From Microbispora sp. NBC_01189 (lineage in GTDB: Bacteria; Actinomycetota; Actinomycetes; Streptosporangiales; Streptosporangiaceae), in contig NZ_CP108581.1 of assembly GCF_036010665.1 (NCBI RefSeq), forward strand, positions 4,817,501 to 4,881,500: a stretch of DNA of 64,000 bases, in the 5' to 3' direction. The stretch's first letter is position 1; every line of letters begins with the position of its first letter. Positions 53,373 to 58,772 of the stretch are shown in pieces. A model generated the notes under the pieces. That model was not told the DNA's origin. It saw nothing but the letters and a program-made list of their open reading frames with translations, and searched no databases. The position numbers and the translations under genes were made by a program.

Positions 53373-54602
53373 TCAGGCCGGCGGCTGGGCGGCCGGGCCC
53401 GCGTCACTCCCCGACGTGGCCCGCCAGGCGATCGTCAGGGCCGCCGCGCCGAAGACCACGCACAGCCAGAAGGCCGCCCCGCTGCCCGTCCGGTCCGCCA
53501 GCCAGCCCCCGCTGAACGCACCGACGGTGGTGCCCGCGCCCATCCCCGACGAGGCCCAGCTCATCCCTTCCGAAGCGCCCGCGGTCCGGCGGCCCAGGAG
53601 GGAGAAACCGGAGCTGAGGGAGGGGGCCGCGCCGATCCCGGCGAGGAAACAGGCGCCCACCAGCGGCAGCTTCGCACCGGCCAGGGGCAGGAGCAGGCCG
53701 CAACCGGTCATCCAGGCCATAGCGGGCACGAAGACCCGTTCGGGGGCCAGGCGGCCGAGCAGGGGCCCGGCCAGCAGGGCCGCCGACGCGCTGCCGAGGG
53801 CCCAGGCCGCCAGCGCGTAACCGGCCCAGTACGGCTCTCCGCCGGCGCCGGCGAGGGCGACGAGAAGGATCTCGATCGAGCCGAGGTACGCGCCGATGCC
53901 CACGAAGGCGGCGACGAGGGCGCGCGAACCGGCCATGGTGATGGGACGCCGGCCCGCCGGGTGGGCGCCACGCTTTCCGAGAGGAGGGGGCGCCGTGCCG
54001 GACTGGCCGGCCAGCAGCAGCCACCCCACGGCCGGACCGAGCAGGACCACCGCGGGCGCGGCCCAGCTCCGCGCGGCGGTGACGGCGGTGATGGCCATGG
54101 GCGCGAGAACGAACATCAGCTCATCGACCACGGATTCGAGGAGGAAGGCCGTCTGCTGGGAGACGCGGTCCGGCACGGCGTGCGCCCATCGGGCCCGCAC
54201 CGCGGATCCGATGTCGACCTGGGCGGCGCCGGCCACCGCCGCGGCCGCGATGATCCCCGGTACCTGCCACCATCCGGACGTGCGGCAGGCCAGCATCAGG
54301 CAGGCGAAGGCGGCGGCCTGGGCGGTGCCGGCGATGAGCAGCACCCGGCGCTGGCCCATCCGGTCCATCCGCCGGGCGTGCAGGGGGGCCATGACGGACG
54401 CGGCGATCACGTACAGCGCCGAGGCCGTGCCGGCGAGGCCGTAGGAGTGCGTGGCGCCGCCCGCGGCGAGGACGATCGCCACGCCCGCCCCCGCGAGCGG
54501 CAGGCGGGAGAGCGCGCCGGTGAGGACCAGCCGTCGCCGGGCGCGAGGGATCAGGAGAGTGCGGTAGCTGACGCGTGGGGGGCCGGAGACCTGTGTGTCC
54601 AT
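53373..54602 (-). CDS. MFS exporter
   Basis: A 409-residue major facilitator protein with about twelve membrane helices. A motif A-like loop between helices 2 and 3 (HARRMDRMGQRRVLL) is present, and GGWLADRTGSGAAF near helix 11. It resembles proton-driven exporters of small molecules. It starts 23 nt downstream of the radical SAM C-terminal fragment, so both were probably one operon and the exporter may have moved that pathway's product. Whether it is still transcribed after the insertion is unknown. Confidence 0.85.
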   Translation of the reverse strand: MDTQVSGPPRVSYRTLLIPRARRRLVLTGALSRLPLAGAGVAIVLAAGGATHSYGLAGTASALYVIAASVMAPLHARRMDRMGQRRVLLIAGTAQAAAFACLMLACRTSGWWQVPGIIAAAAVAGAAQVDIGSAVRARWAHAVPDRVSQQTAFLLESVVDELMFVLAPMAITAVTAARSWAAPAVVLLGPAVGWLLLAGQSGTAPPPLGKRGAHPAGRRPITMAGSRALVAAFVGIGAYLGSIEILLVALAGAGGEPYWAGYALAAWALGSASAALLAGPLLGRLAPERVFVPAMAWMTGCGLLLPLAGAKLPLVGACFLAGIGAAPSLSSGFSLLGRRTAGASEGMSWASSGMGAGTTVGAFSGGWLADRTGSGAAFWLCVVFGAAALTIAWRATSGSDAGPAAQPPA

Positions 54603-54625
54603 CGACGGTTCGGCGCGTCCTGTGC

Positions 54626-55351
54626 TCAGCGCGCGACGGGCGGCCGGCGTGCGCCGTCGAGGCGGCGGTACCGGGCCACGTAGTGGGCTGTCTCCTCATG
54701 GTTGGTGGACGCCGCCAGTTCCGCGAAGCCCGCCTTCCAGCACAGTTCCATGGTGACGGGGCTGGGGTCGGGTCCCTCGCTCCGCCGATCCGCCGCGATC
54801 CCGTGGCACATGCCGAGGACGTCGTACTCGTAGTCGCGCACCGCGACCAGCACGTCTTCGCCGTCGCGCACCTCGGCCAGGATCTCGTCCGGGCCGCGCG
54901 TCGCGGCGTCCGGGAGCGGGCGGGAGTCCAGGTCGAAACGCACGAGTTCGGACATCGGCTCCACCCAGGACGCCGCCACGAGAGACGGGCCCCTCGCCTT
55001 CCACCAGCCCAGCACGAGCTCGTCGAACTCCGGTGAGGTGAAGCAGAACTCCAGGGCCGGCGACAGGGAGTCCGGATCTGCCGTGGAGTTGGCCGCCGCC
55101 CGGCGCAGCAGCTGGGCGCCCGCGCTCTGCCGGCCTTCGATGTGGTCGGCGATGGAGAGGATCACCTCGGACTGGCGGACACCGCCGGCGGTGCGCAGGG
55201 CCGGGAACACGTGGCGCAGGACCAGGTTCTCGGCGAGCAGCCGGGCCCAGAAGAGGAAGCGCTGCATGCTCAGGTTCTGGTGGAGCGTCATGTCCTTGTT
55301 CGCCAGCACGTACTCGAAGTCATCCCGGTCGCCGCGGATGGTGACAAAGCC
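54626..55351 (-). pseudogene. C-terminal fragment of the interrupted radical SAM methyltransferase
   Basis: The fragment begins at the IS element border with GFVTIRGDRDDFEYVLANKDM and continues MQRFLFWARLLAENLVLRHVFPALR, both typical of the C-terminal half of class B cobalamin-dependent radical SAM proteins of the KedN5-like group. About 240 residues remain. The stretch linking it to the N-terminal fragment (57232-58059), about 90-100 residues in relatives, is absent on both sides of the element. No start codon is associated with it. Confidence 0.75.
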
Positions 55352-55480
55352 TTGAACTCCTCCCCGGCCTGAAGGCCGGAGATTCTCCCGTCGCGTCGCG
55401 GTTAAGCGGCGTGCGGGGGTTGACGCTTCGCGGACCGGGCAGCCCCGAGGTCTCCACGTCCTGACACCGCGGTTCCTGCG
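55332..55480 (-). ncRNA. Predicted TnpB omega-RNA (reRNA) with guide
   Basis: TnpB proteins use an RNA made from the 3' end of tnpB and the right end of the element, with the flanking DNA as guide. Here the minus-strand transcript would run from the tnpB 3' end through TTAAGCGG and the hairpin CCGGCCTTCAGGCCGG to GGGGAGGAGTTCAAG. The next 16-20 nt, GGCTTTGTCACCATCCGCGG, are the interrupted radical SAM gene and would be the guide. Boundaries are inferred from known systems, not measured. Confidence 0.45.
55364..55379. repeat. End hairpin of the IS element, tnpB side
   Basis: CCGGCC-TGAA-GGCCGG, a 6-bp stem with tetraloop, at the tnpB 3' side. The flanking CCCC...AG bases are shared with the other end (20 identical bases). 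Confidence 0.85.
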
Positions 55481-56667
55481 GCGTTGCGTATGTTGATCGC
55501 GGCGTTGGTGTCGGCATGCCCGGCCCACCCGCACGCGGGATTGGCGCACGAGAACCGGGTGCCGTCCCGGGCCGCCGGGTCGCGGTGGCCGCATTGGTGG
55601 CAGGTCTGTGACGTGCCCGGGGCGGGGACCTTCACCACCAGGCTGCCGCGATCACGGGTTTTGTACTCCAGCAGGGTGACCGTGCGGCCCCACGCCTGCC
55701 CGGTGATGGCGCGGTTCAGCCCGGCCTTCTGCCGCACGTTCCGGCCGGGGCGCTCGATCGTGCCGGTGGCGGAGCGGACCATGTTCGTGATCGTCAGGTC
55801 TTCCACCACGACCACGCCGAAGGTGCGCGCGAGTTCGGTGGTGGTCTGGTGCTGCCAGTTCACGGCTCGGCGCTTGGCTGTCGCGCGGAGCCGGGCGATC
55901 CGGTCGTAGGTGCGGGCCAGCCGTTTGGACGCAGGCCGGCCGGGAGAGCGAGTGCGGCGCTGGCGGGCCGAGGTCTTCTCCAGCCGGCGCAGGTGTTCCT
56001 TCTCGCCGTCGCGCAGCCAGGGCCCGTGCTCGCGCATGGTGCCGTCCGACAACGCCAGGGCGACGGTGATCCCCCGGTCGATCCCGACCCGCTCGCCGGG
56101 GTGGGCGGCCGGGGCAGGCACCTGGCGTTCGGTCCGGAACACGATGTGCCAGCCGTCGGCTTGTTTGACCAGGCGCGCGCCGGTGATGCGCCCGGCCGGG
56201 CCTCCCCTGGTGACGCCGGGAAGATCCCTGGTCCACCGGAACCGCACCCGCCCGACCTTCGGCAGGCTGACCGCACCCCACCGCCGGTTCACCCGCGTGA
56301 CCTGCAGATCGCGGGCCTGCGGCACATCCACCGCCAACCGGGACCGGGACCGACTCTTGAACGTGGGCCGTCCGGCGGGATGGGCGGGGTTGAAGAAGTT
56401 CGCCCACGCCTGCCGGTAGGTTTTCAGCACCGCTTGGGCCGCCTGGGCGGGCAGCCGGCCCATCCAGTCGATCTCATGGCGGGCCTGCCGGATCGCGGTG
56501 TCGCAGTCCTTCACCGTCGCCAACCGGCCCTGCCGGAAGGTGACGTACTCGTGCAGCAGGTTCCACAGCGCGCGGGCGGTGTGCGCCTGACCGTCCAGCA
56601 CCGCCACCTGGGCGGCGGTGAGGTCGAGTCGCGCCACGTGCGCACGAGCCTGCCTGGTCACCTCCAC
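55402..56667 (-). CDS. tnpB: TnpB, RNA-guided nuclease of the IS605 element
   Basis: The 421-residue protein has an N-terminal helix-turn-helix/WED region, then a RuvC domain with Asp197 (GIDRGITVALALS), Glu289 (VVVVEDLTITNM) and Asp386 (GHADTNAAINI). A zinc ribbon with Cys356, Cys359, Cys374 and Cys379 lies between the last two. All catalytic residues are present, so it is probably active as an omega-RNA-guided DNA endonuclease, the family ancestral to Cas12. It was not required for transposition in known systems but keeps the element in place. GTG 56667 is the start; the ribosome site is weak. Confidence 0.93.
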   Translation of the reverse strand: MEVTRQARAHVARLDLTAAQVAVLDGQAHTARALWNLLHEYVTFRQGRLATVKDCDTAIRQARHEIDWMGRLPAQAAQAVLKTYRQAWANFFNPAHPAGRPTFKSRSRSRLAVDVPQARDLQVTRVNRRWGAVSLPKVGRVRFRWTRDLPGVTRGGPAGRITGARLVKQADGWHIVFRTERQVPAPAAHPGERVGIDRGITVALALSDGTMREHGPWLRDGEKEHLRRLEKTSARQRRTRSPGRPASKRLARTYDRIARLRATAKRRAVNWQHQTTTELARTFGVVVVEDLTITNMVRSATGTIERPGRNVRQKAGLNRAITGQAWGRTVTLLEYKTRDRGSLVVKVPAPGTSQTCHQCGHRDPAARDGTRFSCANPACGWAGHADTNAAINIRNAAGTAVSGRGDLGAARSAKRQPPHAA

Positions 56668-56691
56668 GCCCTGATCGTATCCCTCTGGTTT

Positions 56692-57142
56692 ATGTCATCG
56701 TGATGGAATCCACACCCTGAGTGACCCCGATGTACGCATCGAACGCCATGGTGTCCACACCCTCCACGCCCACGTGGTGTGCGTGACAACGTACCGGCGT
56801 GGGCCCTTCACCGGCCCGATGCCGGCCCGATGCCGACCCGATGCGAGGAACTCATGCGCGAGGTGCGCGCCGACTTCGAGGTCGAACGTCGGGAGTTCAA
56901 CGGCGAACACGACCACGTCCACCCACTGATCCACTACCCGCCGAAGGTCGCCCTGTCCACGCTCGTCAACCCACTGAAGGGCGTCTCGGCGCGGATACTC
57001 CGCAAGGAACACAGCGCGCATGTCCGCAAGTACCTGAGGGGTGGACACTTCTGGTCCGAAGTCCTACTTCGCCGGCTCAGTCGGCGGTGCACCGCTCACG
57101 GTACTCAAGCAGTACATCGAGCAGCGGCAACGCCCACCGTGA
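56692..57142 (+). pseudogene. tnpA: Broken TnpA (Y1 HUH transposase)
   Basis: The IS200-type transposase is readable only across several frames. VHTLHAHVVCVTTYRRGPF is in one frame; CEELMREVRADFEVERREF, the HUH-containing HDHVHPL and YPPKVALSTLVNPLKGVSAR are in a second; YFAGSVGGAPLTVLKQYIEQ is in a third. The first shift is caused by a third copy of an 11-bp unit (56811-56843), and removing one copy restores the frame. The second is one extra base at 57058-57061 (TGGTCC-GAAG-TCCTAC). The start region also has in-frame stops, so it is dead. Confidence 0.85.
56811..56843. repeat. Three 11-bp copies that frameshift tnpA
   Basis: CCGGCCCGATG, CCGGCCCGATG and CCGACCCGATG run head to tail. Deleting one copy gives the reading TGPMPTRCEELMRE, matching the TnpA family. 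Confidence 0.9.
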
Positions 57143-57199
57143 CCTGCGGGTGAAGGAACGTTCGCGCCCTAGCGGGCACTCCCGCGCGGGCCTTCACCC

Positions 57200-57215
57200 C
57201 CGGCCTGAAGGCCGG
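57200..57215. repeat. End hairpin of the IS element, tnpA side
   Basis: Same hairpin CCGGCC-TGAA-GGCCGG as at 55364-55379, in the same orientation, near the tnpA 3' side. Confidence 0.85.
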
Positions 57216-57231
57216 AGCACTGGCCCGCATT

Positions 57232-58059
57232 CCGGTAGAAGGTCTTCGACTTGTTCTTGGCCCAGGAACTCTCCAGAGCCCGGGGGTAACCGTACCTGCG
57301 CCGCACCTCGACCAGGTCCTCCACGAACTCCAGGTCCGCGCGCAGGATTCCGAAGTTCGCGTCGCACAGCACCACCGTCTCGGCGCCGGCCCGGGCGAGG
57401 GCCTCCAGTTCGGCGCGCAGGCGTCCCCGGGAGAAGGACCGCACACGCTGGCCGACGGCTCCGCCCCAGTAGCAGAAGGAGCAGTGGTACGGGCAGCCCC
57501 GGTTGGTCTCCAGTAGCGCGACGTCGTAGCGGAACGCTCCGGTGTCGTCGTGGAGCGGGAGCGCACCGGTCAGGATCGGCGACGGGATGACGTCGAGGTC
57601 TTCGATCCGCGCACGCTCGGCCGTGGTGCGGATGGAGCCGTCCGCCTCACGGTAGGAGATCCCCCCGACCTCGGCGAAGTCGGTCCTGCCGTCGACGATG
57701 TGGGAGAGCAGGTCGACGAAGGTCAGTTCGCCCTCGCCGTTGACGATCACATCGACCGCGGGCCACTGGCGCAGGACGCGTTCCGCCTGGTTCGACACGT
57801 GGTTGCCGCCGAAGACCACGGCCCCTTTCGGGTTCACCTGCTTGAAGGTCTCCGCCAGCGCGCCGAACTGGCGGACGTCCCAGCCAAGCACCGAGAAGGC
57901 CAGGACGTCCGGCACGGCACCGCTGAGAAGCCGTGTCGCCATCTCCCATGGACTGGTCGCACCCGGATAGTTGACGATCTCGATCCGGCTCCGCGCCGAG
58001 AGTTCCGGGTCGCTCCGTACCATGGCCGCGAGGTAGCCTGCCGCCAGCGGCTTGGACAT
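57232..58059 (-). pseudogene. N-terminal fragment of a cobalamin-dependent radical SAM methyltransferase
   Basis: About 276 native residues remain from ATG 58059. They include a B12-binding-like domain (PDVLAFSVLGWDVRQFG... VVFGGNHVSNQAERVL) and the radical SAM CxxxCxxC at Cys189, Cys193 and Cys196 in NRGCPYHCSFCYWGG. The frame then runs into the IS element and stops at 57169. The conserved N-terminal VTIVQQGVWH lies in frame upstream but begins at ATA (58099-58101), where related genes have a start, so the start codon also seems lost. It resembles KedN5-type C-methyltransferases of natural product pathways; that name is an inference. Confidence 0.75.
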
Positions 58060-58199
58060 GTGCCAGACGCCCTGCTGGACGATCGTGACCGCCCTTTTTA
58101 TGTCACCGAAATATTACGCCGCCCCCGCTGGGGCGACGCCTCGGGCGCGCCGATGTCTCCCCGGGGCGGGTCGTACGGCCGGAAGGGGCGTCGTGCGGA

Positions 58200-58772
58200 T
58201 CAGGACCGGAGGACGGGCTCCCCGGTGAGTTCCACACCGGCCTCGGCCAGCCGGGCGAGCGCCGACTCGGTCGTCTCCCTGGCGACCCCGGCGGTCAGGT
58301 CCAGCAGGACCCGTACGGCGAAGCCGGCGGCCGCGGCGTCGAGGGCGGTGGCCCGGACGCAGTGGTCGGTGGCGATGCCGACCACGTCGACGGCCTCCAC
58401 CCCCCGCTCGCGCAGCCACGCGGCCAGCCCGGCGCCGTCGGCGGTGGCGCCTTCGAACCCGCTGTAGGCCGCCTGCCGCGCGCCCTTGCTGAAGATCTCC
58501 TCGACCTTCGCCGTGTCGAAGGCCGGATGGAAGGCCGCCCCCGAAGTCCCGGCCACGCAGTGCGGCGGCCAGGTGCCGACGTAGTTGGGCTCGGCGGCGA
58601 AGTGCGGTCCGGGGTCGACGTGGTAGTCGCGGGTGGCCACCACGTGGTCGTACCCGTGGTCGTCGATGTGGCGGCTGATCGCGGCGGCCACCCCGGCGCC
58701 GCCGCCGACCGGCAGGCTGCCGCCCTCGCAGAAGTCGTTCTGCACGTCCACCACGATGAGCGCGGTCTTCAT
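58200..58772 (-). CDS. pncA: Nicotinamidase
   Basis: A 190-residue cysteine hydrolase that converts nicotinamide to nicotinate in the NAD salvage path. The triad is Asp9 ([12 protein letters not shown]), Lys96 (SKGARQAA) and Cys138 ([11 protein letters not shown]), and metal ligands are Asp49, His51 and His57. It is followed upstream (minus strand) by pncB, the next enzyme of the path, 62 nt away. ATG 58772 has GGAGG at 8 nt. This family also activates pyrazinamide in mycobacteria. Confidence 0.94.

What the first reader, a model, noticed from the sequence alone, without database searches (positions are those of the whole stretch)
55402..56667. Intact TnpB nuclease stranded beside a dead TnpA
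The element keeps TnpB with every RuvC residue (Asp197, Glu289, Asp386) and the four zinc cysteines, while its TnpA cannot be made. The reading frame of tnpB has been preserved although the copy cannot move itself, which raises the possibility of selection on TnpB (retention, domestication or use of TnpA in trans). Recent work on TnpB homologues shows such copies can be recruited as RNA-guided regulators or nucleases.
Basis: partly seen in the sequence, partly recalled or inferred. Interest (0 to 1): 0.75.

Follow-up and report, generated by a model that had tools for sequence, protein, structure and literature searches.

The report
Jumping element with broken transposase gene
This is an ordinary insertion sequence of the IS200/IS605 family that keeps its RNA-guided nuclease gene but has lost its own transposase; sister copies with the same damage sit at other places in the genome, so it was most likely moved by a transposase from another copy and is probably neither stranded nor tamed by its host.

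Summary
TnpB (55402-56667, minus) is full length with D197, E289, D386 and four zinc cysteines; the divergent tnpA beside it (about 56692-57142, plus) is dead.

"Stranded" does not hold. The genome, a Microbispora by kinship, has 15 copies of this element: 9 with a full-length tnpB frame, 1 with a full-length TnpA. Two copies at other sites, c3527 and c4484, share the window copy's one-base tnpA insertion; c4484 also shares an 11-base duplication. The element most likely moved after tnpA died, using TnpA in trans. A second tnpA-deleted type sits at six sites in two species. Both ends and the predicted omega-RNA are kept.

Retention of this tnpB needs no special selection: a neutral copy would have stayed open with a chance of roughly 0.2-0.45. 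Its private changes, 2 nonsynonymous to 4 synonymous, are too few to decide. Over ten tnpA-less copies they are 42 to 56, so TnpB is constrained as a class, as its known role in keeping the element predicts. A near-identical situation is published for Halanaerobium (PMC7290912). A new member of a known kind.

The parts
55352..57234 (-). whole IS605-type element, 1,883 bp, read in the tnpB sense from left end (57234) to right end (55352)
   Evidence: boundaries from comparison of 15 genomic copies and from the uninterrupted relative L041
55402..56667 (-). tnpB, 421 aa, RuvC D197/E289/D386 and four zinc cysteines present
56692..57142 (+). tnpA remnant (Y1 HUH transposase), divergent from tnpB; early stop, 11-base duplication, one-base insertion
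57165..57234 (-). left end (LE) with subterminal hairpin CCGGCCTTCAGGCCGG; 11 of 15 copies carry a recognisable LE
55352..55477 (-). predicted omega-RNA scaffold: 3' end of tnpB plus right end (RE), tip GTTCAA
   Evidence: conserved structure over 22 sequences, 24 pairs, 9 with double-sided changes, with controls; lower synonymous divergence in codons 381-421, weak by itself
55332..55351 (-). predicted guide segment of the omega-RNA (flanking DNA 3' of RE, GGCTTTGTCACCATCCGCGG)
   Evidence: RE tip position; guide role inferred from ISDra2 (PMC8612924)
57235..57239 (-). target / transposon-adjacent motif TCTAC 5' of LE
   Evidence: TCTAC before LE in 9 of 11 LE-bearing copies, CCTAC and TCTAT in the other two
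57240..58059 (-). N-terminal part of the interrupted B12-binding radical-SAM gene
54626..55351 (-). C-terminal part of the interrupted gene; its first 242 bp or so match the relative's continuous frame (93%), the rest is assigned by the open frame only; 312 bp of the relative are missing between the two parts

Best explanation
The feature is a non-autonomous copy of an IS200/IS605 element with divergent tnpA and tnpB. Its tnpA was most likely already dead when it inserted after TCTAC in a radical-SAM gene, and it was moved by a TnpA supplied in trans; the only full-length one now in the genome is at 414003-414365. TnpB with an omega-RNA from the 3' end of tnpB and RE should cut TCTAC + GGCTTTGTCACC..., the joint left by excision, so that repair from the sister copy restores the element. 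Shown: anatomy, ends, omega-RNA covariation, shared tnpA lesions at different sites, one full-length TnpA, interrupted gene. Inferred: movement after the lesions, TnpA action in trans, RNA-guided cutting, and TnpB's value to the element and not to the host.
For: One-base tnpA insertion shared by the window copy, c3527 and c4484 at three different flanks; 11-base duplication shared with c4484; tnpA side differs by 7-8 of 561-572 sites among them. A second type, with LE plus one tnpA remnant, sits at six sites in two species. Of 15 genomic copies, 1 has a full-length TnpA. LE in 11 of 15, RE tip in 14 of 15; the window's last 126 bp are identical to those of c0412, the copy with full-length TnpA. 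TCTAC plus guide has no other site in the genome. Neutral chance of an unbroken tnpB since the split about 0.2-0.45. Relatives in other genera are mostly normal tnpA+tnpB elements: 18 of 31 loci examined have a TnpA match of 136 or more residues without a stop beside tnpB.
Against: The copies are mosaics (window versus c3527, 8/561 differences on the tnpA side, 87/1263 in tnpB, Fisher p 1.4e-7), so gene conversion could have spread the lesions between sites without post-lesion transposition. Only one full-length TnpA is present and its activity is untested. Pooled private changes in tnpA-less copies show constraint (42 N: 56 S), which a purely neutral reading does not predict. Four copies have no recognisable LE, three of them with full-length tnpB; mobilisation in trans cannot explain why those stay intact, unless they are young. 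One genome per species: strain-level tests were not possible.
Confidence: 0.83

Rival explanations
1. The copy lost tnpA in place and its TnpB has been kept by selection for a host function (RNA-guided nuclease or TldR-like regulator).
For: All RuvC residues and the omega-RNA region are kept; private changes 2 N: 4 S.
Against: The lesions are shared with copies at other sites. No orthologous insertion found in the relatives held. No second site for TCTAC plus guide. Sister c4484 lost about half of tnpB. 2:4 is not distinguishable from neutral (p 0.056-0.15).
Confidence: 0.05
2. The shared tnpA lesions spread among copies by gene conversion, so this copy may have inserted with a working TnpA and been overwritten later.
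For: Clear mosaicism along the element.
Against: Near-identity covers the whole LE-tnpA side in three copies, so long tracts would be needed; a second damaged type occurs at six sites in two species, which favours repeated movement of damaged copies.
Confidence: 0.12
3. TnpB is intact only because the copy is young; it has no present role and will decay. (This bears on TnpB's role and can be true together with the best explanation's movement in trans.)
For: Chance of no stop 0.62-0.79 and of no indel 0.33-0.57 since the split; 6 of 15 copies already have broken or truncated tnpB.
Against: Class-wide constraint in tnpA-less copies. In the second type, the remnant shows 3-7 indels per pair over about 410 bp among the four copies with intact tnpB, whose frames show at most a one-codon gap.
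Confidence: 0.3

Closest known systems
IS605 elements of Halanaerobium hydrogeniformans (PMC7290912; search listing and matched passages seen)
   Same: A single element with intact IS605 tnpA, others with partial tnpA, element ends reported intact, mobilisation in trans proposed, inserts in tnpB used to infer recombination.
   Different: A different bacterial lineage (recalled); here four of 15 copies have no recognisable LE and six have a broken or truncated tnpB.
ISDra2 of Deinococcus radiodurans, TnpB + reRNA (PMC8612924; search listing and passages seen)
   Same: TnpB aligns over residues 8-404 with chain 8bf8 (that this chain is ISDra2 TnpB is recalled); the target motif precedes LE and the guide follows RE.
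   Different: Motif TCTAC instead of TTGAT; no activity tested here; tnpA dead in this copy.
IS1341-type tnpB-only elements (PMC9956272; search listing and passages seen)
   Same: tnpB between LE and RE without a working transposase.
   Different: tnpA sequence remains here; that paper classes such copies as decays of IS605 or IS607, not IS1341.
[quoted passage not shown] search listing only; that they are TnpB-derived and nuclease-dead is recalled)
   Same: TnpB relatives outside autonomous transposons.
   Different: RuvC residues present here and no sign of conserved placement.

Membership tests
IS200/IS605 (IS605 group, divergent tnpA/tnpB) | Y1 HUH TnpA gene or remnant beside tnpB | tested here: met
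   Remnant matches PF01797 positions 24-99; full-length homologue in copy c0412
IS200/IS605 (IS605 group, divergent tnpA/tnpB) | Subterminal hairpin ends, target motif only 5' of LE, fixed RE tip | tested here: met
   CCGGCCTTCAGGCCGG at both ends; TCTAC 5' of LE in 9 of 11 copies; GTTCAA tip in 14 of 15
IS200/IS605 (IS605 group, divergent tnpA/tnpB) | Autonomous transposition | tested here: not met
   This copy's tnpA is broken; it is filed as a non-autonomous member
TnpB RNA-guided nuclease | RuvC D/E/D and zinc finger | tested here: met
TnpB RNA-guided nuclease | Structured omega-RNA at tnpB 3' end / RE | tested here: met
   24 pairs, 9 with changes on both sides, 22 sequences; covariation score 0.292, reached by 0 of 500 shuffles, slid versions at most 0.126; but 27 of 500 shuffles reach 9 such pairs and 182 of 500 the number of pair types. 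Transcription not tested
TnpB RNA-guided nuclease | Guided DNA cleavage next to TAM | not testable with these tools
   needs an assay
IS1341 group | tnpB only, without tnpA-derived sequence | tested here: not met
   tnpA remnant present
TldR / domesticated TnpB | Conserved placement outside a mobile element | tested here: not met
   No shared site found in the genomes searched, one per species; both ends present
TldR / domesticated TnpB | Degraded RuvC site (TldR; recalled) | tested here: not met
   D197, E289, D386 present

The most novel reading that the evidence does not exclude
In Microbispora a tnpA-less, tnpB-bearing lineage lives as a stable parasite of a rare intact TnpA. Its nuclease is under selection in its own right, through guided restoration or homing, and the full-length tnpB copies without LE (c4248, c2276, c6831) could be the start of host use.
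Probability: 0.12. Interest if true: 0.5.

Novelty: new member of a known kind. Interest (0 to 1): 0.2.

Why it matters
It is a clear case of 'intact TnpB beside a dead TnpA' that does not mean domestication: the damage predates the present insertion or was shared among copies. In one single-contig genome, 14 of 15 copies have no full-length TnpA beside them. Together they offer a natural series (tnpA intact, broken or deleted; LE present or lost) to ask how long TnpB alone stays under selection.

Tried and rejected
Domestication by conserved site: not supported, as no shared insertion was found, within the limit of one genome per species. One search did show two flank matches outside the element, L064 with L032 (c2276) and L076 with L029. 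Checked again: in L064 and L032 the matching stretch (479 bp, 67%) ends about 1.4 kb before tnpB in L032 and about 2.0 kb before it in L064, with nothing alike between, and in L076 it lies beyond RE while in L029 it lies beyond LE. Neither shows a shared junction.

dN/dS between the window copy and c3527 (0.26) was set aside as a post-loss estimate because tnpA-side and tnpB divergence disagree. The non-coding remnant as a neutral clock for tnpB was set aside too: remnant divergence in the six pairs with tnpB data (0.04-0.06) is no higher than codon positions 1 and 2 (0.045-0.071) and well below position 3 (0.133-0.143), so mosaicism or constraint on the remnant spoils it. Rfam gave four matches in 54500-58500 at E up to 1, all below their gathering scores; two lie at RE, HgcC E 0.067 and sot0042 E 0.99. 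No structure prediction was run.

How the 312 bp were lost is left open: the two TCTAC motifs found in L041 1501-2840 are exactly the two boundaries. Two insertions followed by recombination, a short-repeat deletion before or after insertion, or a faulty insertion all fit.

Full report
Observation. The 421-codon tnpB at 55402-56667 (minus) is open and carries D197, E289, D386 and cysteines 356, 359, 374 and 379. Pfam and PDB comparisons place it with IS605 OrfB and TnpB. The divergent tnpA (plus, about 56692-57142) is broken by an early stop, an 11-base duplication and a one-base insertion relative to copy c0412. The finding's coordinates and residues are right.

Limits and target. Comparing the copies gives sharp ends: RE tip GTTCAA at 55352, LE tip at 57234, TCTAC just outside LE. 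The flanks are two parts of one B12-binding radical-SAM gene: the relative L041 (G002) reads through both in one frame. Of 15 genomes in the genus set, own included, 12 match its N-terminal part at E up to 0.001; besides the own genome only G002 (90%), G003 (61%) and G009 (36%) exceed 31% identity, all in long open frames and all without this tnpB at E up to 1e-100. Against G002, 312 bp are missing, exactly between the two TCTAC motifs of the relative. The relative's own locus lacks about 1.1 kb further downstream, so it is a comparison and not an ancestor.

Copies in the genome. The protein search gave 38 matches: 20 belong to 15 copies of this element, 18 to other TnpB families at 30-51% identity. 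Nine copies have full-length frames, six are broken or truncated. Y1 transposase matches number five, one of them full length, at 414003-414365 beside copy c0412. LE is found at 11 of 15 copies and the RE tip at 14 of 15. c4248, c6831, c2276 and c2226 have no recognisable LE.

Did it move after tnpA died? The window copy, c3527 and c4484 share the one-base insertion; the window copy and c4484 also share the duplication; these three and c2011 share the early stop. On the tnpA side the three differ by 7-8 substitutions in 561-572 sites, and their flanks differ. A second type, with LE and one deleted tnpA remnant, is at four sites here and two in G001; G001 is Microbispora amethystogenes by the matching contig position of L052 and L055. 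Movement after damage is the simplest account. Gene conversion is real here (Fisher p 1.4e-7) and is the main rival.

Selection. Pairwise dN/dS of the window copy with ten others is 0.26-0.44, and over all 55 pairs the mean is 0.33. These values mix histories. Private changes are cleaner: window 2 N: 4 S; ten tnpA-less copies (eight here, two in G001) 42 N: 56 S; c0412 6 N: 1 S. Single copies vary: c1588 (4:2) and c1928 (3:0) show no deficit of nonsynonymous changes, and c4805 supplies 33 of the 98 changes. Under eight mutation models the ten-copy value is below neutral (one-sided p 1.4e-9 to 8e-5), the three full-length copies without LE (5:7) are borderline (p 0.027-0.12), and the window value is not decisive (p 0.056-0.15). 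An unbroken frame since the split from the sisters has a neutral chance of 0.62-0.79 for stops and 0.33-0.57 for indels, roughly 0.2-0.45 together. In the second type, the remnant shows 3-7 indels per pair among the four copies with intact tnpB, whose frames show at most a one-codon gap. TnpB is therefore constrained as a class; this copy says little.

Omega-RNA. Codons 381-421 have lowered synonymous divergence (0.06, against 0.11-0.32 in codons 301-380), but codons 241-300 are also low (0.06-0.07), so this alone is weak. The stretch 55352-55477 and its homologues give a consensus of 24 pairs, 9 with changes on both sides, in 22 of the 35 right ends located. Control: 95.5% of cells pair, covariation score 0.292 against 0.158 in shuffles (0 of 500 reach it) and at most 0.126 when partners are slid; the number of pairs with double-sided change is reached by 27 of 500 shuffles and the number of pair types by 182 of 500. 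Part of the region also codes for TnpB, and the sequences are related, so the shuffles are not a strict test. The predicted guide has no other site in the genome with TCTAC and up to 3 mismatches over 20 bases; the one hit is the element's own RE junction. Excision would leave TCTAC next to the guide sequence, the usual TnpB substrate.

Relatives. A genome-contig scan gave 46 loci. I examined 31 loci: L052-L054 from G001 and 28 of the 46 (L055-L082; L055 and L068 repeat L052 and L054). Of these 31, 18 have a TnpA match of 136 or more residues without a stop, five have pieces or remnants, and eight have none, six of those eight being cut by a contig end. In the genus set, own included, 2 of 15 genomes hold this tnpB at E up to 1e-100 and 9 of 15 hold some Y1 transposase match.

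Literature. [quoted passage not shown] PMC8612924 (listing and passages) gives TAM and guide anatomy. PMC11870625, a preprint (listing and passages), describes TnpB as a retention and gene-drive function. PMC9956272 (listing and passages) treats tnpB elements with tnpA-derived sequence as decays of IS605 or IS607. No claim is made that this element is absent from print.

Verdict. A real but ordinary non-autonomous IS605-type copy.

Noticed in passing
55351/57240 against L041 2286-2598: The insertion lies between sequences that in the relative are 312 bp apart, each ending in TCTAC, the only two such motifs in L041 1501-2840.
   Followed up: partly
G000 copies c4248, c6831, c2276 (L003, L008, L007): Full-length tnpB frames whose LE is not recognisable; better candidates for stranded TnpB than the window copy. 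Private changes 5 N: 7 S.
   Followed up: partly
window 55339-55457, minus: Sub-threshold Rfam match to HgcC (E 0.067) and, at 55361-55383, to sot0042 (E 0.99); a guess is that HgcC, an archaeal RNA by recall, is an omega-RNA of an IS605-type element.
   Followed up: no
G000, 18 further matches at 30-51% identity: Several other TnpB families, some with full-length frames, coexist in this genome.
   Followed up: no
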